This document shows, one piece after another, positions 36,590-63,651 of a stretch of DNA of 64,000 nt. Source of the DNA: Clostridia bacterium. Its GTDB lineage: Bacteria; Bacillota; Clostridia; Christensenellales; Borkfalkiaceae. Where the stretch lies: assembly GCA_017415505.1 (NCBI GenBank), contig JAFQGG010000009.1:1-64000 (forward strand). The letters run 5' to 3'. Under the pieces are notes generated by a model. That model did not search any database. It was not told the origin of the DNA and saw only the letters and a program-made list of their open reading frames with translations. The stretch's first letter is position 1, and each line of letters begins with the position of its first letter. Both the position numbers and the translations under genes were made by a program.

Positions 36590-36600
36590 CACGGGTCGTT

Positions 36601-37725
36601 TTACGAACCGCCGTTTCTTCTTTCGTCGCGGAATTTTAAGTATCTTTCCACCATTTCGGGCGTTACGCTCTTGGAGAAAGTGGACATAACCTCGCGGAAA
36701 TGCTTCACCCCGATATTCACGGGTTGCGCCTTACCGTTCGTCATTTCGTAGTTGGCGCGGTATTCTTCCATCGCCTTATACGCGCATTGTTCGATAATAC
36801 CGCTAATATCGGCGCAGGTGTACGATTCGTCGAGCACGCGAATCATTTCGTCGCGCACCATTTCGTCGTACGGCAATTTCTTCAAGCCGATATCGATAAC
36901 CTTTTTTCTCGCTTCCGCGTTGGGCATACCGATAAGGAATTGCAAGGAGAAACGCTTATAACGAAGGTACGCTTCGTCGATATTTTCGGGGCAGTTGGTC
37001 GCGCCGAGAATGATACGCTTTTCCCCGCCACCGTCGTTCGCGCCGTTCATTTCTTGCAAAAGTTGGTTGGCAACGCCGATCGCCGCGCGGTTGGAATCCC
37101 CCGTACGCTTGGCAAAAATACTTTCACATTCGTCCACGAGAAGCACCGCGCCGTCCTCGCAAGCGCGAAGCTCGGAGAAAATGTCGCGGATATTTCTTTC
37201 CGACTCACCCACGTACGAACCGAAAATGGTGGACGGCGTAATGACGAAGAACCGCACGCCAAGCTCGTGCGCGATCGCCTTTGCCACGAGCGTTTTACCC
37301 GTGCCCGGAGGTCCGTACATAAGCATACCCACGTTGGTGCTAATATTATACCGTTTGGCAACCTCGGGGTTTTTGAGCGCGAACAAATAGTTCTTGATCG
37401 TGATTTTCACGTCCTCCAAACCCGCGATATCGTCGAAGGTGGTGGAGGGAATCCCGCTCATGGACGAGCCAAGTTTGGAAAGTTCCTCTTCCCAGCGGGA
37501 AACTTGGTTTTGACACCACTGCGCCTTTTCCTTAAAGGTGGGGTTGTCCTTGCTCATGTCCTCGTAGGTACGGCGAAGCTGTAACGCAAGACCGATACCG
37601 CGCTGGGCGAGTTTTCTCGCTTCCAAGCGTTGTTTCTCGTCCTTCTCCGCCTTTTCTTTCGTCGTTTTATACAGCGCGGTATTCGCGCTATACTCTTGTT
37701 CGAGTTCTACTTGACTTTTTGCCAT
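36601..37725 (-). CDS. Vps4/katanin-like AAA ATPase with MIT-like N-terminus
   Basis: The 374-residue protein has one AAA domain: a TTFDDIAGLEDVK linker (residues 95-107), Walker A GPPGTGKT at 138-145, pore-loop region GSYVGESERNIRD and Walker B VLLVDE at 194-199, followed by ATNCPENIDEAYLRY. The closest architecture is the meiotic AAA group (Vps4, katanin, spastin). Residues 5-85 form charged helices, the last reading KAQWCQNQVSRWEEELSKL, resembling the third helix of MIT domains. Vps4 disassembles ESCRT-III polymers. Here an ESCRT-III-like gene lies 15 bases upstream. It is the last gene of the operon. The ESCRT analogy is inference. Confidence 0.85.
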   Translation of the reverse strand: MAKSQVELEQEYSANTALYKTTKEKAEKDEKQRLEARKLAQRGIGLALQLRRTYEDMSKDNPTFKEKAQWCQNQVSRWEEELSKLGSSMSGIPSTTFDDIAGLEDVKITIKNYLFALKNPEVAKRYNISTNVGMLMYGPPGTGKTLVAKAIAHELGVRFFVITPSTIFGSYVGESERNIRDIFSELRACEDGAVLLVDECESIFAKRTGDSNRAAIGVANQLLQEMNGANDGGGEKRIILGATNCPENIDEAYLRYKRFSLQFLIGMPNAEARKKVIDIGLKKLPYDEMVRDEMIRVLDESYTCADISGIIEQCAYKAMEEYRANYEMTNGKAQPVNIGVKHFREVMSTFSKSVTPEMVERYLKFRDERRNGGS

Positions 37726-37740
37726 AACGAAAACCTCTCC

Positions 37741-38433
37741 TTAGATACCGTCGGGCATACCCGAGTTATTGGAAGGCGCAGGCGCGGGCGCACCCGTGCC
37801 CGTAGGCGCGCTTGCCGCACCGCTCGTCGTGCTCTCCTCGCCCATGTTCGATTCGTAAGTGGAAAGCGCCGCCGCGTATTTTTGTTGGTTGGCTTTGAAA
37901 ATTTCCTCTTGCGAGGGTTCTTTCTTGCCGAACAGCTTGCGGAAGAATTTCACGATCGGGTTGACGGGCTCGTCGAAAATCGTATCGATAAAGTTGATAA
38001 CCTCGTCCATTTGTTGTTCGTACTGTTTCAACTTTCTCTTGAAAATCTTAATGTTCTTTTTCAAATCCTTGAACACGAGGTTGTTGTCGAGTTTCATGAT
38101 TTGCGAGAACACCTCGCAAGTGCCTTGCAGGATATTGAAAAGGTCTTGAATCGTTTGCACGCGTTCGAGCATGACGATAAAGCGGTCGGCAAGTTCGTTC
38201 ATTTTATAGATAAACTGCCACATTTTCAACGCGTCGTTCGCCATTTTGTAATCGCCCTTTTCGAGCGCGGCTTTATAGCGCGCGTATTCTTTTTTCATTT
38301 GAAGTTCCGATCTCTTTCTCGTGACCTTCACCTCTTCCATCATCTTCTTGGCGGCAACCTTTTGTTTCGCCTGTTCCACGCCCTCGTCGATGCCGTATTC
38401 GTCCACACCTTTCATTTGTTCGCTTCTGCTCAT
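37741..38433 (-). CDS. Charged helical protein resembling ESCRT-III/Snf7
   Basis: No family is certain. The 230 residues are almost wholly helical: a basic region (residues 25-50), a long helix with KAALEKGDYKMANDALKMW (52-72), further helices with NNLVFKDLKKNIKIFKRKL and YEQQMDEVINFIDTIFDEP up to about 157, a short basic helix (FFRKLFGKK), then a flexible Ser/Ala/Pro/Gly tail ending in MPDGI. The basic start, k-gd-k-A-aL pattern, acidic later helices and loose tail match the layout of ESCRT-III subunits. The adjacent gene encodes a Vps4-like ATPase. AGGAGAT precedes the ATG. This assignment is a hypothesis. Confidence 0.55.
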   Translation of the reverse strand: MSRSEQMKGVDEYGIDEGVEQAKQKVAAKKMMEEVKVTRKRSELQMKKEYARYKAALEKGDYKMANDALKMWQFIYKMNELADRFIVMLERVQTIQDLFNILQGTCEVFSQIMKLDNNLVFKDLKKNIKIFKRKLKQYEQQMDEVINFIDTIFDEPVNPIVKFFRKLFGKKEPSQEEIFKANQQKYAAALSTYESNMGEESTTSGAASAPTGTGAPAPAPSNNSGMPDGI

Positions 38434-38466
38434 TGTAGTTATCTCCTTTTTATATATATATTTTTT

Positions 38467-41400
38467 TTATTTAACCTGTTTCAAACGCTCGATAAGATTC
38501 TTCTTCTCTACGGCGTAGTTGCGAATCCATTGAATCGCGTAAGTTTCGTACAAGTTCGACCAATCGTGCGCCTGCAAAATGGATTTACAGGTTCTCGAAT
38601 ATTCGCGCACGGAGAAGCCTTGTCCGCCCGACGCGCCCATACCGCTCTTCTTTTCCGTTCCGCGGTTGACTTCGCACATAACGCCCATGACGATCCCCTG
38701 TCCGTCGGCGGAAAGGATACTAATGGGCACGCGGTAGGAACGGGGGCTTTCGCCGTAGTTGTACACTACGCGGTCTTTCCCGACCACCTCTTCGCAAATG
38801 CGACCGATCGCCTCCACGAATTTCGTGTTGTATTCGTTGTGGCTAAGGAACTGCCCCTTGGCAAATTCCTCAAACTGCGACAAATACTCGCCCACGTAGC
38901 TCAAATTGCCGTTCGTCACGTCGCCCGCCTTTACCGAGTGCACGAACTTCAAATTATCCCTTGCACGCGTTACGGCAACGTTGAATTTATACAGCGCGAC
39001 GGGGAGCTGGTTGAGATGTCCCCAAGATTGGGAAATCTTCCCGAACGGGTCGCGACCGTAGGTGAGCGAAAGTATCATTTCCGACATTTCGTCGCCTTGA
39101 ATTTCGTCCGCCGTGTTGATAAAGAAGATATGCGTATCTTTGATCCCCGCGTACGGCGCGGCTTCCTTATCCTTTTCCATCATGGCGAGAATCCGCTTCT
39201 TTTGGCTCGTACCGAACACGATAACGCCGAGCGATTGATACTTCTCTTTCTCCTCTTCCGTCGTGGGTACGGGGTGCTTTCTAAAATGCTCCTTGATCAA
39301 ATCAATGACCACTTTCGCTTCCGCTTCGTTCTCACCGCCACCGCCGACGATCGTTTCGCCCGCAAAACGGGGGTCGTCGGGCACGTAGTAATTCCAAAGA
39401 CCGAAATCGGGCGTACGCGCCTTGGGCGAAGGGAAGGTGACGAGGTTTCCGCCGTAAAGCTTGGGATGCTCGTTCGAGTATTTGATCAAGCTCTCGTGGT
39501 TACTTCTATAATGCATATCCAACCGCTCGTAAGCGATCGTGCTGTTTTGCGCACGGATAACGAAGTCGATAATCGACGCGCAATCCGCCGTTTCTTCGTC
39601 CACCTCGTCCGCGTCCATATGCTCCCCGCTCCCCTTCGATTCGAAGTAGGAAATGGCAGGCATTTGTTTGGGGTCGCCCGCGATTACGATTTGCGATTTC
39701 GTACGCATAATCGAAGTCAACGCGTCCTCGGCGGGAACTTGGCTCGCCTCGTCGAAGATGAGCACGTCGAATTGATACTGTTCGTATTCAAGAAGCTTAC
39801 TTACCGAGTACACGCTCATCATCAAGCAGGGCGCAAGCTCCATAATCGATTCGCTTCTGTTCTTGAACAGTCTGCGCACGGACGCGTTCGAGCCGGTAGG
39901 CACGGCGCGCAAATAGTTGTGCAAATTCCCGTTCGCGGAAACGCTACGCGTGATACTGCTGTACAGCTTTTCGTCGAGAATACGGCGGTTGTAATCGATA
40001 CTCTTCAAGTCCGCCTTGGCGTACGCGTCCACCACCGACGCCACCGTCGTGATCCCGTCTTTTCCGCTCAATTTGGCAACGTACTTGCTCTTTTCCACGA
40101 GTTTGGAATAGTACGCGTAGAGAATGGTGATCTCGTAGTTATCCCGCATTTTTTCAAGCGGATATTCCTTTCTGCCCGCCTTGGCGTACCAATCGAAGAA
40201 CTGTCTGCCGTATTTGTCGAGGTCACGCACCTTTCTACGGTAGGTCACGTATTCGGTCACGTGGTTGAAATCGCTCACTTCCGCGAACCACTTTTCAAAG
40301 TCGGAATAGGTCATGGATCGACAGTCGTGCGCGTTGCCCATAATTTCCTTATCGAACCACGCCTCGTTCGCGTAGAACGCTTCGTATTTTGCCGAAAGCG
40401 CGTTGATGTGCCGTTGCAATTCTCTACCCGCAAGCGCCTTGATCACCTGCGTAAACACCGCGAAATCCTCTTGAATGGTGCGGTTTTCGTCGCGCACGAC
40501 CTCGCGTACGCGCTCGATCATGTCGAGCATATACAAAAGGCTCGCCCAATCGGTGCATACGTTCTTTTTCACGGACGGGAACACGAGTTTGATTACCTCG
40601 TCCTTGGCGATTCTACCGTTATTCGCCTTGACGAGCTTATAATCGGCAACGAGCTGTCCAAGCTCCTTGACGGTGATATCCACCTTCAATTTAATCGCTT
40701 TCGCCACGCCGTCCACGCCTTTGAGCGTTTCCACCTTCTTATTCAAATACTCGCGGAAGGAAATTTCCTCGTAGAGGAAGTTGGTAAGCTCGTGTTGCGC
40801 GCGCTCCTCGATATACGATTGCAAGAACCCGCAAAGGTTTTTGAGCGCGCTAAGGTTTTGCGAAATTTCCGCCAAACCGTACTTTTCAAGCTCCCCTTTG
40901 AGAGCATCCACCGCCCCTTTGTTTTGGCTGTACAAATCGAGCTTTTCCAAAAGCTCGTAGGTTGCACGAAGAGAGAAATCCGTGCCCACCGCGTTCTTAC
41001 AGCATTTTTTCAAATTCTTAATCGTCAAATCGAAGAAGAGCGGTTTTTTATCCTCTTTGAGGTTCTTTTCCCAGCTCGTTCTGCACTTTTCAAGCAGGGG
41101 CTTGTAATCGAAGACGAACACGTCCTCGGTGAAATTCTCAGCGAGTTCCGCGTGCAAAGCGTCCCGCTTTTCCACCGCTTCCGCGTACTGTTCCACGAGC
41201 GTGACGATCCCGTTCAACACCTCGGTGGAAACGTCGTCCGTGCCCTGATCGGCGGTGAAACGGAAGCCCGCGAAACGGGAAACGTACTCGATTTTTTCCA
41301 ATTCCTTGCGCACTTCGCGCACCGTTTTATCCGCGAAGTCGCCCGCCACCGCAATCGCCTTTTCCAGCTCTTCGCCGTCGCAGTCCGCCTCTTCGCTCAC

Positions 41401-43206
41401 GAGCGGATAATATCTTCTCGCCGCGTCCGCGTACGCTTCCGCGCAAAGCATTTCCGCCTTGATCGCGCGTTTCTCTTCGCCGAGCGAGCCTTTGAGGTAC
41501 AAATACCCCAAATCCCCCGAAACGTCCGCTTGCATGACCGCGCGAATGGAGTGCAAAGGATAATCGAGCAGGGCGCGGACGAGCTTATCCACCACGTCCT
41601 CTTCGCCCCCCGTTACGCTCGCGAACACGTTCTTAATCTCGCGCAGGGGAATCCCGATTTCCGCGCACTTGTTATGCAATTCCGATTCGATTTTGTAATC
41701 GATATCGTAATGTCTGTACCCGTACCAAACGTCCTTTTCGATCGAACCCGAACGCTTGAAAATGGCAACGAGGAGTTTCTCCACTTCCGCAATCTTTTGC
41801 GTGTACGCCTCCAAGTCGTCCTTGGTCAATTTTTCGATAAACGAGGAATCGAACTCCACCGCAACCGTGTGGTTTTCGTTGTAGCCGAGGAGGAGCATAC
41901 GCCCGATAATATCGTAAATGGACGAGCCGAGCGAGTTGTCCGAATCGTAAAATTCGCCGTTATAGCCCACGAGTACCCCGCGCGCGTCTTTGAGCGCTTT
42001 GATATTTTGCTCGTAGTCCGCGTAATCGAACACGGGACGGGGCGCGTCGTACGAGGCTTGCAATTTGCCGTAGGTTTCCGTAACGCTGATCTTTTTATCT
42101 TCGCCCTCGCCCGCAATCAACAAGCAATGCTTGTCGATATTGACGCCCTGCATTTGCAGTTTCTTCACGACGGTATTGAGCGCGGACATTTTTCCCGAAA
42201 CGAAGAGCACCTTTTTCTCGCGCATGATCGCTTCGGAGATCATATTCACGATCGTCTGCGTTTTCCCCGTACCCGGAGGACCTTCGAGGATAAAGCTTTC
42301 GCCCGCCACGAATTTCTCAATGACGTTGCTTTGGCTCGTGTTCGTATCGAGAATGGGGAAGCTCGTTCTCGGATCGATCGCGTCCAAGCCCATTACCTTA
42401 CCCGGCGCGAAAATTCTTTCCCCGAACAGCGCGCGGATAATCTTATTCTTTTGCAGTTGGTCCATGTGACGGGAAACGTCGCGGTACATACACATTCTAT
42501 CGTAATCGAACAGGTCGAGCGCAACGTAGTCCTTTTCAAACGAGCAAAGGCTGTTCCCCGCGAAATATTCTTCCAACGATTCGAAATATTCTACGATATC
42601 GAACGCATTCTCGTCAATCCATTGTCCGCACGCGGGCAGGGGGAAAGGTTTATACCCCTCTTCCACGTATTTGAGAATCAACGCGGGATTGATCATCGCG
42701 TCTTCGTCTACGGGTTTGAGCCAATAGTTCACCCCGCGTTTGTTCATTTTAATGGGAATGAGAATGAGGGGGGTGTAAATATTGATAAACTCTTCCGCGC
42801 CCGCGCTCTTTTTAATTTCAGGATTAAGTACCCGCCATTTCACTCTACCGAACGTGATACAGATCGGGTTTTCGCCCTTTTGCACGATCGCTTGATATCC
42901 CTCTTTAACAAGCTCGTCGAGGTGCGCGGGGTCGGTCGGGTTCGCCGTCGGCTTTTCCGTGCGCCAAGAAATGGGATTGTAGCGGGGGTCGGTGCTCGCC
43001 TTGGAACGGAGCGCGTATTCCTCGTCCTTACCCTGCCCTACGGCAATCTTCCAAAAGCTGTCGTAGGTGAAATACTCGTTCACTTCCAAACGGATCGCCG
43101 CTGTGTTGACGGGATCTTGATTGAGCATATTGTTGCCTTTTTTTACAGCCGTGTTAATGAAACTGTCGCGCCATTCTTCCAGCTGTTTTCTAATTCTTTT
43201 TTCCAT
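38467..43206 (-). CDS. DUF4011-type SF1 helicase with large coiled-coil insert
   Basis: A 1579-residue helicase. Walker A GPPGTGKTQ is at residues 309-317, followed by KKVLFVSGKMSALNTVV, as in DUF4011/AAA_11 helicases. Walker B IFDEASQVPAEDA comes only near 1150, so some 800 helical residues are inserted between. GDPKQMPAISYF, EIQGDEM and FNVAVTRARD complete the SF1 motifs. The last 130 residues align by eye with the Vsr-like nuclease that ends many such helicases, but the metal-binding Asp appears lost (RVPISIL, then GVMCEV). Such proteins translocate on nucleic acid; target unknown. GAGGAG precedes the ATG. Confidence 0.82.
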   Translation of the reverse strand: MEKRIRKQLEEWRDSFINTAVKKGNNMLNQDPVNTAAIRLEVNEYFTYDSFWKIAVGQGKDEEYALRSKASTDPRYNPISWRTEKPTANPTDPAHLDELVKEGYQAIVQKGENPICITFGRVKWRVLNPEIKKSAGAEEFINIYTPLILIPIKMNKRGVNYWLKPVDEDAMINPALILKYVEEGYKPFPLPACGQWIDENAFDIVEYFESLEEYFAGNSLCSFEKDYVALDLFDYDRMCMYRDVSRHMDQLQKNKIIRALFGERIFAPGKVMGLDAIDPRTSFPILDTNTSQSNVIEKFVAGESFILEGPPGTGKTQTIVNMISEAIMREKKVLFVSGKMSALNTVVKKLQMQGVNIDKHCLLIAGEGEDKKISVTETYGKLQASYDAPRPVFDYADYEQNIKALKDARGVLVGYNGEFYDSDNSLGSSIYDIIGRMLLLGYNENHTVAVEFDSSFIEKLTKDDLEAYTQKIAEVEKLLVAIFKRSGSIEKDVWYGYRHYDIDYKIESELHNKCAEIGIPLREIKNVFASVTGGEEDVVDKLVRALLDYPLHSIRAVMQADVSGDLGYLYLKGSLGEEKRAIKAEMLCAEAYADAARRYYPLVSEEADCDGEELEKAIAVAGDFADKTVREVRKELEKIEYVSRFAGFRFTADQGTDDVSTEVLNGIVTLVEQYAEAVEKRDALHAELAENFTEDVFVFDYKPLLEKCRTSWEKNLKEDKKPLFFDLTIKNLKKCCKNAVGTDFSLRATYELLEKLDLYSQNKGAVDALKGELEKYGLAEISQNLSALKNLCGFLQSYIEERAQHELTNFLYEEISFREYLNKKVETLKGVDGVAKAIKLKVDITVKELGQLVADYKLVKANNGRIAKDEVIKLVFPSVKKNVCTDWASLLYMLDMIERVREVVRDENRTIQEDFAVFTQVIKALAGRELQRHINALSAKYEAFYANEAWFDKEIMGNAHDCRSMTYSDFEKWFAEVSDFNHVTEYVTYRRKVRDLDKYGRQFFDWYAKAGRKEYPLEKMRDNYEITILYAYYSKLVEKSKYVAKLSGKDGITTVASVVDAYAKADLKSIDYNRRILDEKLYSSITRSVSANGNLHNYLRAVPTGSNASVRRLFKNRSESIMELAPCLMMSVYSVSKLLEYEQYQFDVLIFDEASQVPAEDALTSIMRTKSQIVIAGDPKQMPAISYFESKGSGEHMDADEVDEETADCASIIDFVIRAQNSTIAYERLDMHYRSNHESLIKYSNEHPKLYGGNLVTFPSPKARTPDFGLWNYYVPDDPRFAGETIVGGGGENEAEAKVVIDLIKEHFRKHPVPTTEEEKEKYQSLGVIVFGTSQKKRILAMMEKDKEAAPYAGIKDTHIFFINTADEIQGDEMSEMILSLTYGRDPFGKISQSWGHLNQLPVALYKFNVAVTRARDNLKFVHSVKAGDVTNGNLSYVGEYLSQFEEFAKGQFLSHNEYNTKFVEAIGRICEEVVGKDRVVYNYGESPRSYRVPISILSADGQGIVMGVMCEVNRGTEKKSGMGASGGQGFSVREYSRTCKSILQAHDWSNLYETYAIQWIRNYAVEKKNLIERLKQVK

Positions 43207-43236
43207 ACCGTTCTCCTCGTTTTGGTTGGCTGTTTA

Positions 43237-44991
43237 TTATAAACGCATAGCGTTCACTTCGTTGATAATTTCGGGTTTTTCCCGTTTGAATTCCTCAAAC
43301 TCCGCAAGGCAGTTGGCGGCGAAAATTCTCGCGTGCGCCTCTACCACTTGATCCTCGTATAAGTTGAAATCCTTTTTCGAATCGCGATAGCGAGAGAAAT
43401 TGATACGCCATTGATCGGCGTGCGCTTTATAAATATCGAAATGCACGAGATAATATCCGCTCTTGTCCAAAACCCCGTTTTGAAAAGCGTCGATCGCGGA
43501 AAATTGCAAGGCGTGGAACGCTTCGTGCAACAGCGTGCCCCGTCCGTCGCCCAAGCTATCAAGCTTGCCCGCGTTGATAAACTCGGCGTTCATGCGCATG
43601 GTTTGTCCGCCGTCGCAACATTGTCCGCGAAGGGTATCCCCCTCCTCGATATCGAACACCATTTTTCCGTGCGGGATTTTCATAAGTTGTTGGAGCGCGG
43701 CGTACGCAAGCTCCCAATATTCGGTCATTTTCGCTTGCGCGTGCTCGGGGGTAAGCCCCGTAATGCCCATGGACGCAATATCCACGGCGCAGTTGACCAC
43801 CCAACCGCATTTAAGGCGCAAGGACAGCCCGTCCGTGTTCATGATCTTCTCCACTTTCGCCCAAGTGAGGTCGTCGCAATAAATATCGTCGTATTCGGTG
43901 CGCGAAAGCTTGTAAACGGGGTGCAAAATGGGATTGTCGGGCGCGAGCGTAGGCGTACGCTTGGGCTTGCGCTTGATTTTGTAATCCCAATCAAGGAAGT
44001 CGAAGGTGCACTCCTCGAACCCCGCGATAAACGCTTCGAGCAGGGGTTTTCTTTGTTTTTCAAGCGTTTCTAAAAACTTCTTCCAATCGCACGCCGTCGA
44101 TTTGCCGAGTAGCTCGTCCAAGCCCTCGTAGCCCAAGAATAATCCGTGCGCCTTGATAAACTCTTCCGCCTCTGCGTCCTTTTCCGCAATCGAGAATTTT
44201 TGGAATATCTTCCCTTTCGTCATACGGAAGGTAACGAGCGGGATAAAAGAAGAGGACAGGGAGTTTAAGTAGGTGTTCAAAACGTCGGGTTCGGGGAACA
44301 GCTTTTTCACCTTTTCCGCGTACACCTTTTCCACCGCGTACGCCTTGTCCGTGGCAAGAATAAACTGTTGCGCCGTTTTACATTCTTGGCGAATCTTGCG
44401 AAGATAGTACGCGAACGATTCTTCCACGCTCTCCACGCCCGCCATACCCTCGGTTTTCTCGTATACGATCACCTCGTTTCCGCCCGCGCAAGCCTGTTTA
44501 TACAGCCCTGCGAAAATTTGCGAAGCGGTCGCGCTAAATACGGTGGCGATCTTTTCGCAATCGACGAAACGGATATCCTTCCCCTCTTGCTTAGCATAGC
44601 ACCGTACCGCGTACGAAAGTTCGCTTGGAAACGGTCCGTAGAGCAACAGCGTGTTGTCTTGGTAAATACGGTTGCTCTCGATCACGGTCACGTTGTAGAG
44701 GATTCCCGTGCGGATATCCTCGTTTTTAATGAGCGGGAAAATGCGCGAAACGTCGGTAATCGGCGCGTCCGTACCGTGCTCTTTCTCCCGTGCAATCGCT
44801 TCCTTGCGCTTTTGCACGAGCATTTTCAAAAGCTCTTTCAGCTCCGCCTTTTTCTTGGGGTCGGGCACGAGGTCGTAGAGTTTTCGAATCAACCCCGCCG
44901 CGTGCTCCACCGTTTCTTGCGAATACTCCGCTTCACGGCATTTGCGAAGCGCGGCTTTGATTTCATAATAGTAAAGTTGAATATCGTCCAT
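43237..44991 (-). CDS. MIT-like, degenerate AAA and HExxH metallopeptidase protein (paralogue 1)
   Basis: The 584-residue protein is a paralogue of the next gene upstream. Residues 1-75 (MDDIQLYYYEIKAALRKCRE) form three helices like a MIT domain. Residues about 110-260 keep the outline of an AAA domain (NTLLLYGPFPSELSYAVR, then FVDCEKIA, then EVIVYEKTEGM), but the Walker A Gly-Lys-Thr and the Walker B acids are lost, so it should not hydrolyse ATP. The C-terminal part has TLLHEAFHALQFSA, an HExxH zinc site, and the conserved EDQVVEAHARIFA, whose Glu may be the third ligand. A peptidase role is inferred. Confidence 0.7.
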   Translation of the reverse strand: MDDIQLYYYEIKAALRKCREAEYSQETVEHAAGLIRKLYDLVPDPKKKAELKELLKMLVQKRKEAIAREKEHGTDAPITDVSRIFPLIKNEDIRTGILYNVTVIESNRIYQDNTLLLYGPFPSELSYAVRCYAKQEGKDIRFVDCEKIATVFSATASQIFAGLYKQACAGGNEVIVYEKTEGMAGVESVEESFAYYLRKIRQECKTAQQFILATDKAYAVEKVYAEKVKKLFPEPDVLNTYLNSLSSSFIPLVTFRMTKGKIFQKFSIAEKDAEAEEFIKAHGLFLGYEGLDELLGKSTACDWKKFLETLEKQRKPLLEAFIAGFEECTFDFLDWDYKIKRKPKRTPTLAPDNPILHPVYKLSRTEYDDIYCDDLTWAKVEKIMNTDGLSLRLKCGWVVNCAVDIASMGITGLTPEHAQAKMTEYWELAYAALQQLMKIPHGKMVFDIEEGDTLRGQCCDGGQTMRMNAEFINAGKLDSLGDGRGTLLHEAFHALQFSAIDAFQNGVLDKSGYYLVHFDIYKAHADQWRINFSRYRDSKKDFNLYEDQVVEAHARIFAANCLAEFEEFKREKPEIINEVNAMRL

Positions 44992-44997
44992 AACGCT

Positions 44998-46713: not shown

Positions 46714-46828
46714 ACTACCCGTTTCCCGTTCCCCGTTTTCGGCAAAATCCGCCGAAAAGAATTTTTACTAACCGCGGGCAACGCGGGGAAACGCCCAAAA
46801 GGCGTTCCCGCGCGTTTTCCCGTTTTGC
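46714..46828 (-). other. Intercistronic double hairpin inside the operon
   Basis: This is the only long gap in the operon (115 bases). It holds two GC-rich hairpins: gcgggaacgcc/ggcgtttcccgc-like arms around 46780-46820 and ttttcggc/gccgaaaa around 46735-46760 (minus strand). Neither has a T run, so they are more likely RNA processing or stabilising elements than terminators. Confidence 0.5.
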
Positions 46829-48463: not shown

Positions 48464-48489
48464 TTCGTCTTATCTTCTCCCTTTTCGCC

Positions 48490-49233
48490 TTACACGAACA
48501 CGGCGAGTTGATCTCTCGCTTTATCGTACGCCTTGACGAGTTCTTGTTCCGCGCGCGCGTTCGCAACCGACACGCCCTCTTCCATGAGCGCCCAATCGCG
48601 TGCGACTTTATTCGCTTCCACGAGCGGTTCTATTACTTTTTTCGTTTCCTTGATTTTGCCCGTTTCCACGATATCGAGCACGCGGGTATCGCTCCATTCG
48701 TCGATATACGCGAGTATCTTTTTCGCGTGGTTTGCCGCCGCCACCGACGATTCGTCCAACACGTAGCCCACCGTCGTTTTCAACTCGTCTAACTTCTTGA
48801 TACTCTCCGAAAGCACCTTATCCAAGCCCGTGACGAACATATCCGAGTGCGGGTCGGAAAGCTTCTCCGCCTTTTCCCGCGCCGCCGCAACGAAGGAGAG
48901 TACCTTGCTCTTAAAGCCCGTTTCCGTCTTGGGCAAAATCTTCTCCACTTCTTGTTTGATCTTGGCGTACTTTTTGAGCATATCCTCCGCCGCGCTTTGT
49001 TTGAGCTTTCTGTTCCCGTACACTTTCTTTTTCATGTCCGCAAGCTCTTTGATCGGTTTTTTGATTTTATCAAAACCGTTGTTCATGCCGAATACGACGA
49101 GTTTTTTCATCAAATCGTCTTTGTCGAACTCTTGCATGACGTCCTCGCCGTAGCCGAAAGTGCCTTGATCTTCCAACTTCTCCTCGTCGAATTTGAACAC
49201 CTTTTTGAGCACCGTTTTGAAATTATTTTTCAT
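48490..49233 (-). CDS. Helical protein of unknown function
   Basis: 247 residues, mostly charged helix (MKNNFKTVLKKVFKF at the start, GYVLDESSVAAANHAKKIL in the middle), without membrane segments or known motif. I choose ATG 49233, which overlaps the end of the upstream gene by 11 bases (ATGAAAAATAA). The frame is open to 49263 but lies inside that gene. The coupling implies equal synthesis with the zinc-ribbon protein. It may be another structural or adaptor subunit. Confidence 0.6.
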   Translation of the reverse strand: MKNNFKTVLKKVFKFDEEKLEDQGTFGYGEDVMQEFDKDDLMKKLVVFGMNNGFDKIKKPIKELADMKKKVYGNRKLKQSAAEDMLKKYAKIKQEVEKILPKTETGFKSKVLSFVAAAREKAEKLSDPHSDMFVTGLDKVLSESIKKLDELKTTVGYVLDESSVAAANHAKKILAYIDEWSDTRVLDIVETGKIKETKKVIEPLVEANKVARDWALMEEGVSVANARAEQELVKAYDKARDQLAVFV

Positions 49234-50497: not shown

Positions 50498-50516
50498 ATC
50501 TTCAACCTCTCTTTGC

Positions 50517-56528: not shown

Positions 56529-56543
56529 TTCTCCGTTTTACGA

Positions 56544-58340
56544 TCAATAGAAATTGCGGTTCTTTCTCTTCGCCGTGTCGATATAACCGTGTTCGGTGAT
56601 ACCGAGCTTATCGAAGCGATACTGTTTCTTGCCCACGACGAACACGATCAACCGTTCGTCCTCGAAGCAATATTTGGTTTTGAACGCGGAGAACGCGCGC
56701 TTCCAAACGGACAGGATTTGCGCGTACTGCTTATACAGCTTCTTCGCTTCTTCCTTTTCCTCGGGGGAAAGTTCGTCCGTCTTGTTTGCCACCGCGTCCG
56801 TCAATTCGCACAGCGGGCAAAGCGTTCTATCGTCCTCTTTCTTCGCGCTACGCACCGAGAAGTTGCGCCCGCAACAGGAACATTCGCGCATGAGCGCGTC
56901 CGCCTTTATCATACGCAAATCGTTGACGGAGAACCGCATTTGCGTGGTTTGCACCTCTTCCTCGTTGATCGGATCGAAGTACACGATTTCGGGATAACGG
57001 CAATCTTTGCAGTATTGCTTGCCCGGCTTCGTCTTGTCCGCGGAAGGCACGGTGAAAAGTTGCGATTGACAGCGCACGCATTTGCACGTTTCCGCACCGC
57101 GAAGGTTTTGACAAACCACCGTTTTAAGGTGGGTCTTATGCGCCCCGCGCGCCTTGATCGTCGCGATTTCCGCCGTCGAGAAACCGAGGTTGTCGTCCTT
57201 GACGTTGCGCAGGGGCAACGAGGTCGCTTCGTGCGGTTTGCCCGCCACGAGCATGAGCGCGTTGTCCTTGACGATAAAGCTCGTCGAGTCGGCGCAGTTT
57301 AAGCACTTCACGGTGAGCGTATTGTTCAAGCCGAAGATAAAGCGCAATTTCTTCGCGCCGTTGATCATGCAATCGAACACGCTCGCGTCCCATTGTACGT
57401 GGGAGATCCCGAGCACTTTCAACTCGTCGCATTGAAGCTCACATTCCTTGTGCGCCGTCAATTCGAGCATGGTATCTACGATCGGCTGATCGCGCTTTTC
57501 GTCGAGCAACAAGCTGTCCACGAACCCTTCGTCACCCGAGCTTTCAATCAGTTTTTCAAGCGCGTTGAGGGCGTTGTTCGTCAACATTTCCACGCGCGAA
57601 TCGTCGGACACGAACGGTTCTTGTTCGCCGTCCTCCTCGTCGCGGAAGTTGCTCAGCGTCTTGTCAATCGCGCTCGCCTCTCGCTTTAAGAGGGGTACGA
57701 GCTCGATCCGCCGTTCGTGTTTGATAAATCTACCGCGGAAGTATACCTTACCCAACACGCGTTCCGATTGCCCCGTACCGCCGTTGAGCGCAAGGCGGAG
57801 GGATAACCCGTAAATGTCTTCCGCTTCTTCTTTCAAAACGTCCTCGTCCGTGACTTTCATTAAGTCTTTCGGGCGAAGCACGATATCCGGCCAAAGGAAT
57901 TTCACCAATTTTTGCGCGGTGGAGAACGCTTCCTCGCGCCCCATCAATTCCTTTTTTTGCTGTTTATATTCCACGATGGAATATTTCTTGTGATAAAGGG
58001 TCGCCGCCTTTTCGATAAACTGCATCCAATGCGCGTCCGCGCTGTCGGCGGATTTGCCTCCGCGCACCCCTCTAAACCAGCTCGCGCCCGCAAGCTCGAA
58101 ACCGATTTCGTCGCTCGTTTCGTCGTCCTCGTCGTCCTTAAACTGTGCGTTGGGAATGGAGGGATCGTACGCGTACTCGTTCTTTCCGTCGCGAATGAAA
58201 AGATCCACGCCGAAACTACCGATGCGGTCGATATCCCCGCTCACCTTATACCCGTTGTCCGCAAAGGTGGGACAATCGAGAATGAGTCTGAACGCGCTTT
58301 CAAATTCCGTTTTATATTTCGTACCGATTAAAATTTCCAT
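56544..58340 (-). CDS. Multi-zinc-ribbon protein of unknown function
   Basis: 598 residues. No family is recognised for the N-terminal 350 residues, which are alpha/beta with acidic patches (KDDEDDETSDE). The C-terminal half holds several Cys pairs: VKCLNCADS, CKCVRCQSQ with YCKDCRYPE, and ECSCCGRNF with LCPLCE, i.e. two or three zinc ribbons. It lies 14 bases after the SNF2-type helicase gene, which also has many zinc knuckles. The pair may act together on nucleic acid or on a shared protein partner. Confidence 0.6.
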   Translation of the reverse strand: MEILIGTKYKTEFESAFRLILDCPTFADNGYKVSGDIDRIGSFGVDLFIRDGKNEYAYDPSIPNAQFKDDEDDETSDEIGFELAGASWFRGVRGGKSADSADAHWMQFIEKAATLYHKKYSIVEYKQQKKELMGREEAFSTAQKLVKFLWPDIVLRPKDLMKVTDEDVLKEEAEDIYGLSLRLALNGGTGQSERVLGKVYFRGRFIKHERRIELVPLLKREASAIDKTLSNFRDEEDGEQEPFVSDDSRVEMLTNNALNALEKLIESSGDEGFVDSLLLDEKRDQPIVDTMLELTAHKECELQCDELKVLGISHVQWDASVFDCMINGAKKLRFIFGLNNTLTVKCLNCADSTSFIVKDNALMLVAGKPHEATSLPLRNVKDDNLGFSTAEIATIKARGAHKTHLKTVVCQNLRGAETCKCVRCQSQLFTVPSADKTKPGKQYCKDCRYPEIVYFDPINEEEVQTTQMRFSVNDLRMIKADALMRECSCCGRNFSVRSAKKEDDRTLCPLCELTDAVANKTDELSPEEKEEAKKLYKQYAQILSVWKRAFSAFKTKYCFEDERLIVFVVGKKQYRFDKLGITEHGYIDTAKRKNRNFY

Positions 58341-58354
58341 ACCGTCTTTTCACC

Positions 58355-61300
58355 TCAATCGTCCGTTCTCAAATTATCCGAACGCAAAATGTCTTGAATA
58401 TCGATAACCTTGCCGATTTCCTTTTGGAAGTTTTCGCAGAACTTCACACCGCCGTCCATCTTGTACTCGTACAACGAACGAATGTACGATTCGAAGGTGT
58501 TGCTCTTGACGGGTTTGAGTCTACCCTTTCCGCACGCGGGGCAGGTCGCTTCCCACTTCCCGTCGAATTCGATCGAATGGGGCTTGGGTTTACACGAACC
58601 GTATTTACACTTCGCGCACGCCGAAATTGCTTCCGGTCCTTCGCCGATAATACAACCCCTGCGCTTACAGATATCGCGGTACGAACAGCTTGCGCACGCC
58701 GCCTTGATATCGGGGCTGGTGGGGTTCTTCAAGCGACGGTAAATTTCAAGCGCTTTACACTTCCCGTACATATCCCCGTCCGATTTGGTGAACCGCTCGC
58801 AATGCGCGAGGGCGCAAATCTTCGGACAATAATACACGCGCTTGCCCTTCACGCCGTCGTTGCACATGATACCCTTTTTCGTGATACACATATACGAGCT
58901 ATCCTCGCGCTTGGACGAACGGGTGAATACCTTTCCGCACGCTTTCGAGTCGCACTTGATATCGCGCGCCGCGATTTCTTCCATGACCGTGCGCTCGTTC
59001 TTTTCCGCGCACATTTCGCACTCGATTTCCCCGCTCCCTTCGAGGTCTTCCCTCGAAATGAGCTTGATGTTCCCGCAACCTTGCTTGGGACAGCGGATCG
59101 TAACCATGTTGTCGTTGTTACAGCCCGCGAGGATTTCCGCGTCGCCCGTGTCGCTACTCATAAGCCCGATACGGGTGAAGTAGGTGAGCACGTAGCCTTC
59201 GAGCTTATACATATCCGCGAGCGAATAAATGATAATGTCGCTGTCCTGTCCAAGACGGAATACACGCCCGATACGCTGTTGCATATCCAAGGGGTTGGGG
59301 GTGATTTGGAAGTTGACGATAATACTGCAAGTTTGCAAGTTCGCGCCTTCCGTCAAATGTCTGTCCGTAACGACGAGCACCGCGTTGCGCTTTTCGTTGA
59401 ACAGCTGTTCGAGCTTGGTGTCGCTCGAAATTTGGTCGATATCGATCACGCGCCCGCCGAACTCGGACGAGTTTTTCAGCGTGTCGTACACGGGCATCGT
59501 AAGGTTGTCCTCGTCGCCCACTTCGTAGTCGAAGAATACGATCACGCGCGAGTTTTCGTGTTGACGGAGGATTTGGCGGAGCTTATCCATTTTGTATTGG
59601 AACTCGTTTTGCTCGCCGTATACGGGCTGGAAGCAATAGCGCACGCCCGATTCCACTTCTCTGCCCTTTTCCTCTTCGATCGGTTGCATACGGATTTGCG
59701 AAGCGTAGAAGCCCACCGAACCTTTTCTATGGAAGCGGTAGGGGAAATTCGCCTTGCTTTCGTCGCAAATGCTGTCCATATCGCTCAGCCCGAACGCCGT
59801 GAGGTAGTTTTGTACGAACTGTTCGTAGAGGTTTTCGTACTCTTCCACTTCCACTTTCTTTTGCGCGTACTCCACGTACTTGGGCACGGAATAGCAAAGC
59901 TCTCTGCCCAAAACGTCGGTGACGGGTTTGCCCTTTCTGTACGGCGTGACCACGAGTCCGCCGTTCATGAAATCCACCGTTTCGAGATCCATTTCAATGC
60001 GCGCCTTTTCGCCGTCCACGACGCCCTCGATCTCGATCATTTTTTCCTGCGGTTTATCCGTCTTAAAGAACATCAAATTGACGACCTTCTTTCTCGACGC
60101 AGGCTTGGCAACGCACGCCTGCGGTTGACGGATCATGATGGAACGGAGTACGCCGTGGTGGTACGCTTCCGCGATCATTTCCTTGATCTTTTCCTGTATT
60201 TCCGGCTCGCCGTCGAAGAAGTCGTTGATGTATTTGTCTTTCAACCCCTCGTAGTAGTAATCGAAGTCTTGCGCGCAACCCCGTTCCGCGAGGTATTCCT
60301 CGAACTTTTTACGGAAGGGCGCAACCGTGGAGTTGTAGCTTTCGCTGTAAAATTTAAGAATATAATTTTTCACCGTGCCGGGGTCGGTGTTCTTTCTGCC
60401 CTGCAAGTACTCGCCGAGGAAGACATCAAGCACTTCGTTCTTTCTCTTTGCGTCCAAGCTCTCGAAGTCGTCGTCGGGATAGGTCTTTTCGAAGTAATCG
60501 CGGAACGCCTTGCAAAAGATGGCGTCGCCACCGCGAATGAGTGCGATTTTTTCCTTGCGCACGAAGTCCATAATCGTCGTCGCGCCACGGCAAATGTTTT
60601 TGAGGTAGAACTCCCGCTCTTCTTCGAACGCTACCGAGTGGGAAACGCCCTCTCTGAAATCGGCGGGTTCGCCCCCCTTACAACGAATGAAGTACCAAAG
60701 ACGGAACATATCGGCAAGATTGCCCGCGTGCGGGGTTGCCGAAAGGAGCAAACAGTAGGTCATGTTCGCCGCTTTCTTCGTCTTCATAAGCTCGGACAAA
60801 ATCTCCATGGCTTTCGCGTCCTTGCCCTTGTCCACGTTGAGGTGGTGCGCTTCGTCCACGACGACCACGTCAAAGAGCTTGTTCTTCACCGAGCTTACGT
60901 CCCATTGTACGAAGTCTTCCATTTTGACGATCATGGGGTATTTGGGATGGTCGAAATCGCCGTTTTCCCCGTGCAAGAAATGACGGGGGTCAAGCTTGTT
61001 TCCGATCGGTTTGAGCGTAACGGGTTCTTTGGGGTTTTGCACCACCTTTTCCCCGTTCCATTTCCCAAGCCCGAAGCATTTTTCAATCGTGTAGATCCAA
61101 GAACCGTACACCTGTTCGGGCACGATCAAAAGCATGGACGAGATAAGCCCGCGCACGGCAAGCTCGCTCAATACGATACCCGCCTCGAAGGTCTTACCGC
61201 TACCCACGACGTCGGCAAGCAATCCAAAACCGCGAAGCTTTTTCAAAAATTGCCCCGCCGATTCCTTTTGGTGCTTGAAAATCACCTCGTCGTCCGTTTC

Positions 61301-61552
61301 GTGGAACGATTGACGGGGAATCCCGTAACAAATAGACTCGCCGTCCTCCGTTTCAAATTCCCGCTCGCAATAAAGGCTTGCGTCGATAAGAAGCTCCGCG
61401 AACGAGTCGTAGCGATCGAGCGGGTCTACGAACGAATTCCAACGCTGTACGTCGGCGGTAAAGCGTTCGTTGCCCTGTAAGTTGGTGCGCTCGCTGTCCT
61501 TTTGGAAAGCGTTCGCGTTGAATTTTATGCGTTTTAACTGTTTTTCTTCCAT
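58355..61552 (-). CDS. SNF2-type SF2 helicase with C-terminal zinc-binding array
   Basis: 1065 residues. The first RecA domain has motif I DVVGSGKT (114-121), DEAH box (233-236) and SATPHAG (271-277). The second has VVTDRHLTEGANLQ (727-740) and motif VI QQRIGRVFRLGQ (758-769). This is the SNF2-like arrangement used by ATP-driven translocases. From about 820 on there are at least five Cys clusters (CPKQGC, CEMC, CDSKAC, CASCSYRDIC, CPACGKGR), an unusually rich zinc array. It follows the Hsp70-like gene by 14 bases. Neither a nuclease nor a methylase domain is seen. Substrate unknown. Confidence 0.82.
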   Translation of the reverse strand: MEEKQLKRIKFNANAFQKDSERTNLQGNERFTADVQRWNSFVDPLDRYDSFAELLIDASLYCEREFETEDGESICYGIPRQSFHETDDEVIFKHQKESAGQFLKKLRGFGLLADVVGSGKTFEAGIVLSELAVRGLISSMLLIVPEQVYGSWIYTIEKCFGLGKWNGEKVVQNPKEPVTLKPIGNKLDPRHFLHGENGDFDHPKYPMIVKMEDFVQWDVSSVKNKLFDVVVVDEAHHLNVDKGKDAKAMEILSELMKTKKAANMTYCLLLSATPHAGNLADMFRLWYFIRCKGGEPADFREGVSHSVAFEEEREFYLKNICRGATTIMDFVRKEKIALIRGGDAIFCKAFRDYFEKTYPDDDFESLDAKRKNEVLDVFLGEYLQGRKNTDPGTVKNYILKFYSESYNSTVAPFRKKFEEYLAERGCAQDFDYYYEGLKDKYINDFFDGEPEIQEKIKEMIAEAYHHGVLRSIMIRQPQACVAKPASRKKVVNLMFFKTDKPQEKMIEIEGVVDGEKARIEMDLETVDFMNGGLVVTPYRKGKPVTDVLGRELCYSVPKYVEYAQKKVEVEEYENLYEQFVQNYLTAFGLSDMDSICDESKANFPYRFHRKGSVGFYASQIRMQPIEEEKGREVESGVRYCFQPVYGEQNEFQYKMDKLRQILRQHENSRVIVFFDYEVGDEDNLTMPVYDTLKNSSEFGGRVIDIDQISSDTKLEQLFNEKRNAVLVVTDRHLTEGANLQTCSIIVNFQITPNPLDMQQRIGRVFRLGQDSDIIIYSLADMYKLEGYVLTYFTRIGLMSSDTGDAEILAGCNNDNMVTIRCPKQGCGNIKLISREDLEGSGEIECEMCAEKNERTVMEEIAARDIKCDSKACGKVFTRSSKREDSSYMCITKKGIMCNDGVKGKRVYYCPKICALAHCERFTKSDGDMYGKCKALEIYRRLKNPTSPDIKAACASCSYRDICKRRGCIIGEGPEAISACAKCKYGSCKPKPHSIEFDGKWEATCPACGKGRLKPVKSNTFESYIRSLYEYKMDGGVKFCENFQKEIGKVIDIQDILRSDNLRTDD

Positions 61553-61566
61553 AGCCTTTTGCCCTC

Positions 61567-63651
61567 TTAATCCTGATTGCTTTCAACGACGATCGTCTTT
61601 TTGTCCTTGAAGTCCAATTTAATTTCCTGCACGTTTACCGTTTTCGTATCCGAAGCCAGCGTGCTAAACCGTTTGTACCGTTCGTCCCAATAGGTAATCG
61701 TTACGTTGAACGAATCGGACACGTTCTCTACGATCGGTTCGGCGACGCCCGACGGGTCTACCACGATCCCTTCCTTAAAGTGTACTTCCCGCTTGCCCGC
61801 CGTATCGTATATACATTTGCGAAGCCGTACCCTGCGTCCGTTGTGATAGAACCAAATATCGCTCTTTACCACCGATTTGAGCTTGAAAATTTGCTCCGCC
61901 GCGATACGGTAGGACGATTTCTCGTTCCCCACCGACAGGTGGCGTTTGCCCGCGCCGTCGAGCTTGTACTCTATGCGACAGGTCTTGCCCCCCGCCGTCA
62001 CCGTCTTCCCGCTCTCTCTGCCCGCGAGAATATCCTCTTTCGTGACGATCGTGGAGAAAATTTCGTCTTCCTCTATCCCCTCGAACCGCGTTTCCCTGTC
62101 GGTGTGCGGTATGACTTGATAGGAATAGGTACTCGCGTTGTAGAACTTGGTAGGCTTGTTCGCGTTGAGCTCTTGCCCCTTGTTCGCGAATTGCGAGAAC
62201 ACCTTCGGTTCCGTTCCGCCCACGTACGCCCAAGTACCGTAGGAGAGGGAAAGCACCGTCTTGATTTCCAAGTTATCCACGGCAACGACCGAACAGCCGA
62301 GCACCGCGGCGTACACGCTACTTTCGTTGGCGTAAATCTTCAACGCGCCGTCTTCGTCTTCGCCCTGCTCGTCGTCGAAGGTGAGCACCGCCTTTTGCGG
62401 ATTGCTCTTTTTGAGGAGCGATTTGATAAAGGTGTCGAGAGAGTAAGTTTCGATAACCCCGCCCGCGATAAACACCTTTTTCACGTCGTCGTTGATACGC
62501 TCGCTCACTTCTTCGTCTATGTATTTTGCAAGATCCCAAGCCGCGCCCCGCTTTTCGCTATCGAGAATCCCGATACATTGCGTAAGCTCTTTCTTCGTGA
62601 AAAAGCGTTGCACGTAGGTATCTCGGCAAATGAGCAACGGCACGCCCTTTTCGTACAGCTCGTCGTCGCTAATCGGACTGCTCAAAATTCGCTTTGCGCT
62701 TTTGAGGTCTTTGAGGAGCTGGTACTTTTTCGAGTCCATGCACCCCTCGTTGATATGCCCCGTTTGCCCGTACGAGGGCGTTACGAAAGTTTCCCGATCG
62801 ATAATGCTCGTTTCCAAGTAATCGCGCATTGCCTCGTCGATCTTCGTACCGCCAAGCTCGGCGGGGGTCTTGTGCCCCTCTTGTCCGTCGATATACATTT
62901 GTCCGTTTACGAACCAGCCCTTTGCCACCGATACGTATTCCTCGCCGATATCGAACACGAGGAATTTTTCCCCGTTGGCTACCATGCGGTTGTGGTACGC
63001 GTACATACCCAACGCCTTTACCGACGAAAGCGATTTATGTACCTTGGCGCGGAAGGTCTTTTCCACGATCCGCACGAATTCGGAAACGTACTCCACGCCC
63101 ACCTTGGACGGGTACACGACGGAATAGCGCACCTCGCCGAAAGTAAGCTCTTTCTTCTCGCTAAGCTCCCGAACGCCTTGCGAAACGACAGACGACACGT
63201 AGAGGAAGAACGCTTCGCAAACCGCTTGGGGCGTTTTCCCGCCGTCGAACGTGCGGTTGGTTTCTTCCATTTTGGAAAACGCCTCCATGTCTTGCTTGTC
63301 CTTCGGCAAGTAGAATTTCGGGAAACGGCGTTTGCGGAAATAGTACTCCTCGTTCGATTTCCAAACCGCCTTATCGGGAATACGGGCAAGCAAGGACATC
63401 AAACTCTTGATTCGAACTACCGTCGTAAAGTCCGATTCCCCGCTCGCTTCCACTTGGTTGCCAAACAGCCAAGTCTTCGTGGCGGGCGAAAGGAACGCCA
63501 CGGCGGGAATCCCGATTTGCGTATCCAAGTTATCCCCCGCAAACTTCCCCAAAAAGATTTTGGATGAACGGGGTACTTTATACCCGTATGCAATCTTGAG
63601 CGAATCGCTCCCCAGATCGATAACGACGTCCAGCGTCTTCACGTTCGTCAT
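61567..63651 (-). CDS. Hsp70/actin-fold ATPase-like protein
   Basis: First gene of the operon, 694 residues. The ASKHA (Hsp70/actin) ATPase core is visible: phosphate-1 loop VVIDLGSDSLKIAY (9-22), phosphate-2 loop FLVFDIGEEYVSVA (about 227-240) and adenosine motif VFIAGGVIETYSL (about 400). It is much diverged from DnaK, which is encoded separately at 32230-34020. The C-terminal 200 residues are beta-rich and may correspond to a substrate-binding part. GGAGG lies ten bases before the ATG. Such orphan Hsp70s occur in several conflict or envelope systems, but the role here is unknown. Confidence 0.78.
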   Translation of the reverse strand: MTNVKTLDVVIDLGSDSLKIAYGYKVPRSSKIFLGKFAGDNLDTQIGIPAVAFLSPATKTWLFGNQVEASGESDFTTVVRIKSLMSLLARIPDKAVWKSNEEYYFRKRRFPKFYLPKDKQDMEAFSKMEETNRTFDGGKTPQAVCEAFFLYVSSVVSQGVRELSEKKELTFGEVRYSVVYPSKVGVEYVSEFVRIVEKTFRAKVHKSLSSVKALGMYAYHNRMVANGEKFLVFDIGEEYVSVAKGWFVNGQMYIDGQEGHKTPAELGGTKIDEAMRDYLETSIIDRETFVTPSYGQTGHINEGCMDSKKYQLLKDLKSAKRILSSPISDDELYEKGVPLLICRDTYVQRFFTKKELTQCIGILDSEKRGAAWDLAKYIDEEVSERINDDVKKVFIAGGVIETYSLDTFIKSLLKKSNPQKAVLTFDDEQGEDEDGALKIYANESSVYAAVLGCSVVAVDNLEIKTVLSLSYGTWAYVGGTEPKVFSQFANKGQELNANKPTKFYNASTYSYQVIPHTDRETRFEGIEEDEIFSTIVTKEDILAGRESGKTVTAGGKTCRIEYKLDGAGKRHLSVGNEKSSYRIAAEQIFKLKSVVKSDIWFYHNGRRVRLRKCIYDTAGKREVHFKEGIVVDPSGVAEPIVENVSDSFNVTITYWDERYKRFSTLASDTKTVNVQEIKLDFKDKKTIVVESNQD

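What the first reader, a model, noticed from the sequence alone, without database searches (positions are those of the whole stretch)
36601..63651. Twelve-gene, 27-kb operon that looks like an undescribed molecular machine
One promoter (63708-63736), twelve minus-strand genes with gaps of 6-33 bases or overlaps (one 115-base gap), and one strong terminator (36551-36589). The set is an orphan Hsp70, an SNF2 helicase with a zinc array, a second zinc-ribbon protein, a giant MBG-repeat membrane protein, a zinc-ribbon/Sel1 protein, three coiled-coil proteins, two pseudo-AAA metallopeptidase paralogues, a DUF4011-type helicase and a Vps4-like AAA ATPase. I know of no named system with this set. Base composition matches the surroundings, so it need not be a recent mobile insertion. 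My model is an envelope-linked remodelling or defence complex.
Basis: partly seen in the sequence, partly recalled or inferred. Interest (0 to 1): 0.95.

Follow-up and report, generated by a model that had tools for sequence, protein, structure and literature searches.

The report
Undescribed membrane-linked ATP machine operon
Twelve neighbouring genes of a gut bacterium belong to one gene system whose relatives sit in the same order in dozens of other gut bacteria, and together they likely build an ATP-driven protein machine anchored in the cell envelope that would help the cell resist viruses.

Summary
In detail: twelve co-directional genes (36601-63651), short gaps, a strong terminator. They are one system. 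In 31 assembled loci (gut Clostridia, a few Bacilli) the order is Hsp70-like, SNF2, Cys-rich, membrane/MBG, Zn-ribbon-like, coiled coil, HExxH metallopeptidase, SF1 helicase, helical protein, AAA; 26 hold every position, three end at contig ends, two are reduced. It is not a fixed twelve: six genomes of one genus and L060 have an eight-position core without metallopeptidase and helicase, and these two are both present or both absent in 37 of 37 loci. Presence is patchy: 2 of 57 genomes of the window's genus, 13 of 17 of another. A congener lacks the block at the same site; two of four finished tree tests conflict with DnaK. The first protein has an Hsp70 fold with a degenerate ATPase site. Function is inferred: most likely an envelope-anchored remodelling machine for immunity (about 0.4). 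There is no direct evidence of defence, and the neighbours shown are mostly metabolic (capped list). No paper found describes it (partial library).

The parts
61567..63651 (-). g01 Hsp70-like ATPase (NBD + beta substrate-binding-like domain, no C-terminal helical lid in the model), degenerate catalytic site
58355..61552 (-). g02 SNF2-family helicase/translocase with C-terminal cysteine (Zn) array
   Evidence: Pfam SNF2-rel_dom, Helicase_C; nearest solved relative by sequence RapA E 1.4e-10; DEAH box in 31 of 31, motif I in 30, motif VI in 29
56544..58340 (-). g03 cysteine-rich protein (five CxxC in the window copy), no Pfam family above cut-off
   Evidence: family in 31 of 31 loci
50517..56528 (-). 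g04 membrane protein: N-terminal hydrophobic segments (five in this copy) and a long MBG-repeat domain; fastest-evolving subunit
   Evidence: MBG_3 7.1e-25; hydropathy scan; 52.7% mean identity among six close relatives, lowest of all genes measured
49223..50497 (-). g05 N-terminal zinc-ribbon-like protein; Sel1 similarity weak
   Evidence: family in 31 of 31 loci
48490..49263 (-). g06 coiled-coil protein; matches the family of ~500-aa single proteins at this position elsewhere
46829..48463 (-). g07 coiled-coil protein with acidic C-terminus; among the loci found only here and in L060, plus database proteins 83-100% identical
44998..46713 (-). g08 HExxH metallopeptidase paralogue 1 (optional cassette)
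43237..44991 (-). g09 HExxH metallopeptidase paralogue 2 (optional cassette)
38467..43206 (-). g10 SF1 (UPF1-like) helicase with a long insertion between motifs I and II (about residues 370-1110) and a C-terminal domain resembling a degenerate nuclease (optional cassette)
   Evidence: DEASQ in 29 of 29, Walker A in 28 of 29
37741..38433 (-). g11 protein; equated with the ~245-aa helical protein of other loci by position and length only (its own profile finds it here and in L060)
   Evidence: most relatives elsewhere end in an acidic tail (22 of 25), the window copy does not
36601..37725 (-). g12 classical AAA ATPase of Vps4/CDC48 type with helical N-terminal region
63700..63736 (-). promoter-like sequence upstream of g01
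   Evidence: consensus match only
36556..36590 (-). intrinsic terminator after g12
34088..63927 (.). block absent from the same site of congener G005 (operon plus the 34260-36374 gene)
   Evidence: homology stops at 63928 and resumes at 34087

Best explanation
The twelve genes are one conserved, modular operon system that most likely builds an envelope-anchored, ATP-driven machine which would protect the cell against phages. Inferred mechanism: the membrane protein (g04) would display its length-variable MBG-repeat domain outside the cell and act as sensor and anchor. A signal would pass inside to a core of degenerate Hsp70-like protein (g01), SNF2 translocase (g02), two Cys-rich proteins (g03, g05), coiled coil (g06/g07), helical tail protein (g11) and Vps4/CDC48-type AAA ring (g12); the ring would pull on or disassemble polymers of g06/g11 through their C-terminal tails, and SNF2 would engage the incoming nucleic acid. 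The optional cassette of metallopeptidase and SF1 helicase would add cleavage of a bound protein while its nucleic acid is unwound. Shown here: gene order, modularity, co-inheritance, patchy presence, the Hsp70 fold (predicted model), nearly invariant AAA, helicase and HExxH motifs, and fast evolution of g04. Not shown: transcription as one unit, topology of g04, complex formation, any activity, any anti-phage effect.
For: Same order and direction in 31 of 31 loci; in the 30 other than the window, 249 of 262 gaps are at most 50 bases, median 10.5; all positions present in 26 of 31. Gene distances co-vary, r 0.71-0.97 between genes, mostly more than with DnaK, 0.47-0.74. Of 17 genomes with a metallopeptidase hit at E<1e-6, 16 also have the Hsp70-like gene, which has hits in 31 of 347 (apparently the same sample); at E<=0.001 it is 16 of 19. 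Patchy: 2 of 57 in the window's genus, 13 of 17 in another, 1 of 299 across the phylum. Absent from the same site in a congener. The SNF2 data reject two DnaK groups (p 2e-33, 0.017). g04 evolves fastest. g02 and g10 are distant relatives of defence helicases (PDC-S37 E 2e-151, ProA 475.6 bits, DrmD 95.8 bits). Logic parallels CoCoNuT systems: Hsp70-like protein thought to barely hydrolyse ATP, plus UPF1-like helicase with a large insertion (PMC11090510, passages and section 10 seen).
Against: Flanks: the 25 of 66 Pfam families shown for 89 flanking proteins are mostly metabolic, with one AbiH and one DNA methylase; 78 PADLOC families matched but each in at most two of 89, and only 25 were shown, so some defence genes lie near some loci but no defence-island setting is shown. 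No active nuclease or known toxin was recognised. Near-fixation in one genus (13 of 17) also fits housekeeping. No phage, plasmid or viral-contig relatives. Fast evolution of g04 is not special to its outer part: N-terminal 175 residues 56.2%, rest 52.1%. Two further tree conflicts were not significant (window/L070 p 0.17, L035/G092 p 0.135). The ESCRT-III-like reading of g11 was not supported by the fold search, and the window's own g11 lacks the acidic tail.
Confidence: 0.4

Rival explanations
1. A non-defence envelope machine: the AAA ring, helical proteins and Hsp70-like protein remodel the membrane or assemble and display the MBG surface protein, as a lineage-specific surface or division function.
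For: Membrane/MBG-family protein in 31 of 31 loci; Vps4_C in 19 of 22 AAA members; near-fixed in one genus; flanking families shown mostly housekeeping; long-helix model of a g11 relative.
Against: A pure envelope machine hardly needs an SNF2 translocase, two Cys-rich proteins and a UPF1-like helicase. Very patchy in the window's genus. Tree conflicts in two groups.
Confidence: 0.3
2. A nucleoprotein quality-control machine: metallopeptidase, AAA ring, SNF2 and helicase strip and digest proteins stuck on DNA or RNA, in the manner of SPRTN/Wss1 with p97 (recalled analogy).
For: HExxH with weak SprT-like Pfam matches in 5 of 31; the AAA is close to the CDC48/p97 group; metallopeptidase and helicase are both present or both absent in 37 of 37 loci.
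Against: The cassette is optional while the membrane protein is not; the g08 SprT match is below cut-off; does not explain the MBG domain or patchiness.
Confidence: 0.12
3. An offensive or mobile-element cargo system that acts on neighbouring bacteria through the surface protein.
For: Fast-evolving, length-variable g04; horizontal movement; insertion-like site difference.
Against: No secretion apparatus, toxin or immunity gene recognised among the twelve; no terminal repeats seen.
Confidence: 0.08
4. Unrelated genes that merely sit together.
For: None beyond the lack of shared annotation.
Against: Same order in 31 of 31 loci, in genomes labelled Clostridia and Bacilli.
Confidence: 0.01

Closest known systems
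CoCoNuT type III systems (McrBC-derived; PMC11090510)
   Same: Hsp70-like NBD/SBD protein judged to barely hydrolyse ATP, UPF1-like SF1 helicase with a large helical insertion after Walker A, coiled coils, Zn ribbons, some with a CDC48-like AAA
   Different: No McrB GTPase, McrC/DUF2357, VWA or HEPN domain recognised here; instead SNF2, an MBG membrane protein, an HExxH peptidase and a Vps4/CDC48-type AAA
DISARM / BREX SNF2 helicases (DrmD, BrxHI)
   Same: SNF2 family, distant profile match (DrmD 95.8 bits)
   Different: Far below the DrmD cut-off of 610; no other DISARM or BREX protein recognised among the ten window proteins scanned
ProA, Hhe and PDC-S37 anti-phage helicases
   Same: g10 aligns with ProA over residues 95-1578 (475.6 bits) and with PDC-S37 (E 2e-151)
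   Different: Below the ProA (1500) and Hhe (2000) cut-offs; here one gene of a larger operon
Vps4/katanin AAA with ESCRT-III
   Same: Classical AAA with Vps4_C in 19 of 22 members, helical N-terminal region, neighbour protein g11 with an acidic C-terminal tail in 22 of 25 relatives
   Different: ESCRT-III fold of g11 not shown; MIT domain not detected; best profile and solved matches are CDC48/p97; SNF2 and Hsp70 partners foreign to ESCRT
IetAS anti-phage system
   Same: g12 matches IetA (E 2.8e-32)
   Different: IetS is a subtilisin-like protease (recalled); here the peptidase has HExxH and is optional
NTP-dependent conflict systems (PMC7159879, passages seen)
   Same: Modular operons that combine NTPases, Hsp70 in some, peptidases and effectors
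   Different: No MoxR-vWA pair or GTPase centre was recognised here

Membership tests
CoCoNuT type III | McrB-like GTPase and McrC/DUF2357 subunits | tested here: not met
   All 12 window proteins scanned against Pfam at E 0.1 without a McrC/DUF2357 match; the only AAA is of CDC48/Vps4 type
CoCoNuT type III | UPF1-like helicase with large insertion after Walker A | tested here: met
   Motif I near residue 305, DEASQ near 1155
CoCoNuT type III | Hsp70-like NBD/SBD protein with degenerate ATPase site | tested here: met
Hsp70 | NBD plus beta substrate-binding fold | tested here: met
   Predicted model: Foldseek 1.6e-18, 688 alignment columns with Hsc70; 469 residues aligned with DnaK
Hsp70 | Canonical catalytic residues (Hsc70 E175, T204 and glycine loop) | tested here: not met
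   E175 position S/A/T in 28 of 28; the glycine loop mostly reads GEE (the alignment itself is weak, E 0.024)
Vps4/ESCRT | AAA with Vps4_C oligomerisation element | tested here: met
   19 of 22 family members at E<=0.1, best 4e-6; the window's own protein does not show it among its best 25 of 28
Vps4/ESCRT | MIT domain at the N-terminus | tested here: inconclusive
   Helical-looking N-terminal region; no MIT family among the 25 listed of 65
Vps4/ESCRT | ESCRT-III (Snf7) fold partner | tested here: inconclusive
DISARM | DrmD above cut-off with partner genes | tested here: not met
   95.8 bits against 610; no other DISARM protein named for the other window proteins scanned, lists capped at 25
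Anti-phage ProA / Hhe | Full-length match above cut-off | tested here: not met
   475.6 of 1500 and 333.6 of 2000 bits
SprT-like metallopeptidase | Pfam SprT-like above cut-off | tested here: not met
   17.2 bits against 25.6 for g08; best E 0.0035 in 5 of 31. HExxH itself in 29 of 29 loci and in the window's second copy
Defence system in general | Protection against phage | not testable with these tools
   Needs an experiment
Defence system in general | Location in defence islands | tested here: inconclusive
   89 flanking proteins: 78 PADLOC families matched, each in at most two proteins, 25 shown; 25 of 66 Pfam families shown, mostly metabolic

The most novel reading that the evidence does not exclude
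A new class of bacterial immunity machine: a surface-displayed, length-variable MBG sensor wired through a pseudo-Hsp70 and an SNF2 translocase to a Vps4-type AAA ring that remodels tail-bearing helical filaments at the membrane, with a plug-in protease-helicase cassette that destroys the captured nucleoprotein; in effect a bacterial ESCRT-like device coupled to nucleic-acid motors.
Probability: 0.22. Interest if true: 0.92.

Novelty: categorically new. Interest (0 to 1): 0.78.

Why it matters
A large, precisely ordered gene set has been kept together across gut bacteria labelled Clostridia and Bacilli, has moved between lineages, and appears in no paper found in the library searched. It unites protein-remodelling engines (Hsp70 fold, Vps4/CDC48-type AAA), nucleic-acid motors (SNF2, SF1) and a fast-evolving membrane protein, a combination I know of in no named system. 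The natural eight-position, five-gene and full versions, and the empty site in a congener, make subunit roles directly testable.

Tried and rejected
Viral-contig scans with g08, the Hsp70-like profile and the metallopeptidase profile found no relatives; the first genome-contig scan with g03 alone found none and was followed by one with a 28-row Hsp70-like alignment. Narrow single-protein searches saw little: g07 in 1 of 151 relatives, g03 in 2 of 391 of the class. PDB sequence searches with g06, g11 and metallopeptidase profiles gave only coiled-coil and other unspecific matches. The idea that g11 is an ESCRT-III protein came from reading its charge pattern; structure prediction and fold searches did not support it, and Snf7 is not among the 25 of 27 Pfam families listed for 25 relatives. 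Of the 45 loci, 29 plus L040 (as G092) were assembled; the other 15, mostly short or contig-end, were left out of the counts. The trees are quick trees of 26 rows (L045, L047, L053, L068 dropped as near-duplicates; L029 had no whole DnaK); groups for testing were picked after the distance table; the fifth test did not finish. I first read g04's fast evolution as a hypervariable outer domain; one search shows its membrane part nearly as variable, so I lowered the novel case from 0.25 to 0.22. Paper searches found no description; the library lacks most subscription journals and bioRxiv. For PMC7159879, PMC10250203 and PMC11090510 I saw listings, abstract starts and passages, and for the last also section 10; for all others the listing and abstract starts only. 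The degenerate-nuclease reading of the g10 C-terminus rests on a recalled consensus; gene names of neighbours (sigE, spoIIGA, rnhB, ylqF, hrcA, grpE in G092) are my reading of the sequences. g04 and g11 of the window were not scanned against PADLOC or NCBIfam.


Full report
What is there. The twelve reported genes exist as described: all on the minus strand, gaps of 6-33 bases except one of 115 and one overlap, a strong terminator at 36590-36556 and a plausible promoter region before the first gene. Base composition does not stand out. Pfam, NCBIfam and PADLOC name only SNF2, the SF1 helicase, AAA and MBG with confidence.

Is it a system? A same-order genome (G092) carries the first five genes in order. 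A search for relatives of the first gene gave 35 proteins; a profile of 28 of them then found 45 loci in named genomes, nearly all metagenome-assembled genomes labelled Clostridia, Clostridiales or Firmicutes (Candidatus Borkfalkia, Protoclostridium and Alloclostridium among them), with two labelled Bacilli and one Acholeplasmatales. In the 44 genomes reached through these loci, 36 have a metallopeptidase match; all 44 have some AAA match, and 38 have one at E below 1e-45. I assembled 29 of the loci with their downstream DNA, plus G092 and the window. Iterated profiles find g01-g05 in 31 of 31, g06 in 29, helicase in 29 and AAA in 27; the final map has a metallopeptidase in 29. With g11, and g06 of L061, assigned by position and length, 26 of 31 hold every position (in L062 the helicase is in two pieces). 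The order does not change, all genes run the same way in 31 of 31, and in the 30 loci other than the window 249 of 262 gaps are at most 50 bases. Three loci end at contig ends (L055, L068, L070). Two are reduced: L060 (no metallopeptidase or helicase) and G092 (five genes, followed by hrcA-grpE-dnaK-dnaJ).

Modularity. Six further genomes of one genus (g301) were fetched: all six have hsp70L-SNF2-Cys-membrane-Zn-coiled coil-g11-AAA, without metallopeptidase and helicase in the stretch. With these, 29 loci have both cassette genes, 8 have neither and none has only one (37 loci). On the SNF2 tree L060 is sister to the window, which has the cassette, and G092 lies elsewhere, so the pair probably came or went more than once. 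In the window and L060 the coiled-coil position is held by two genes (g06, g07); the window and L043 have two metallopeptidases.

Distribution and movement. The Hsp70-like gene has hits in 31 of 347 genomes of the order (one marginal), 1 of 299 drawn from the phylum (the window's own), 2 of 57 of the window's genus and 13 of 17 of genus g301. Of 17 genomes with metallopeptidase hits at E<1e-6, 16 also have it; of all 19 hits, 16. Distances among operon genes correlate at 0.71-0.97, those with DnaK at 0.47-0.74. Six pairs with DnaK 86-91% identical have SNF2 proteins only 30-46% identical. Formal tests: the SNF2 data reject the DnaK group L055/L056/L059/L063 (p 2e-33) and L042/L062 (p 0.017); they do not reject window/L070 (p 0.17) or L035/G092 (p 0.135); a fifth test did not finish. 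In congener G005, DnaK 94% identical, the same neighbours (ylqF, rnhB, spoIIGA and sigE-like genes on one side, dnaK and dnaJ on the other) are separated by about 2.2 kb with one gene that looks like a leucine-rich-repeat lipoprotein; homology to the window's contig stops at 63928 and resumes at 34087. So about 29.8 kb is a presence/absence block. I saw no terminal repeats and found no phage, plasmid or viral-contig relatives.

How it most likely works. A machine tethered to the envelope by g04, whose repeat domain would sense or bind something outside, with an ATP-driven interior that combines protein remodelling (g01, g12) with nucleic-acid handling (g02, g03, g10) and, when the cassette is present, proteolysis. 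Anti-phage immunity is the reading that best unites patchiness, movement, a fast-evolving membrane protein, helicase kinship with ProA and PDC-S37, and the likeness to CoCoNuT. Against it: flanking families shown are mostly metabolic, with only scattered defence matches in capped lists, no killing enzyme is recognised, and one genus has it nearly fixed. I give defence about 0.4, a non-defence envelope function 0.3, nucleoprotein quality control 0.12.

Verdict. The grouping is real and its gene set matches no system I could name. The exact twelve are one variant of a modular family; the function is open.

Noticed in passing
window 32230-34050; G092 (L004-L006); L055: In 3 of 31 loci (some with one flank missing) the operon adjoins the dnaK operon, on different sides: dnaK genes lie downstream in the window and G092, upstream in L055. 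In L063, a close relative of L055, the dnaK contig ends just after dnaJ, so it may be the same. In the window's genome grpE lies on another contig. Could be a favoured site or a functional link to the host Hsp70.
   Followed up: partly
window 34260-36374, minus strand: A 704-aa protein with an N-terminal signal-like segment, TasA/camelysin-like to my eye, lies between the operon and dnaK and is part of the block missing in the congener.
   Followed up: no
window about 63815-63868: A long near-perfect inverted repeat between the upstream sigma-factor-like gene and the operon promoter, without a T-run.
   Followed up: no
window 24906-25028, minus strand: FMN riboswitch.
   Followed up: no
   Followed up: partly
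G690 (L201/L202): Two consecutive genes match the g11 profile in this genome.
   Followed up: no
L043: Two tandem metallopeptidases (644 and 627 aa) at the cassette position, parallel to the doubled gene in the window.
   Followed up: no
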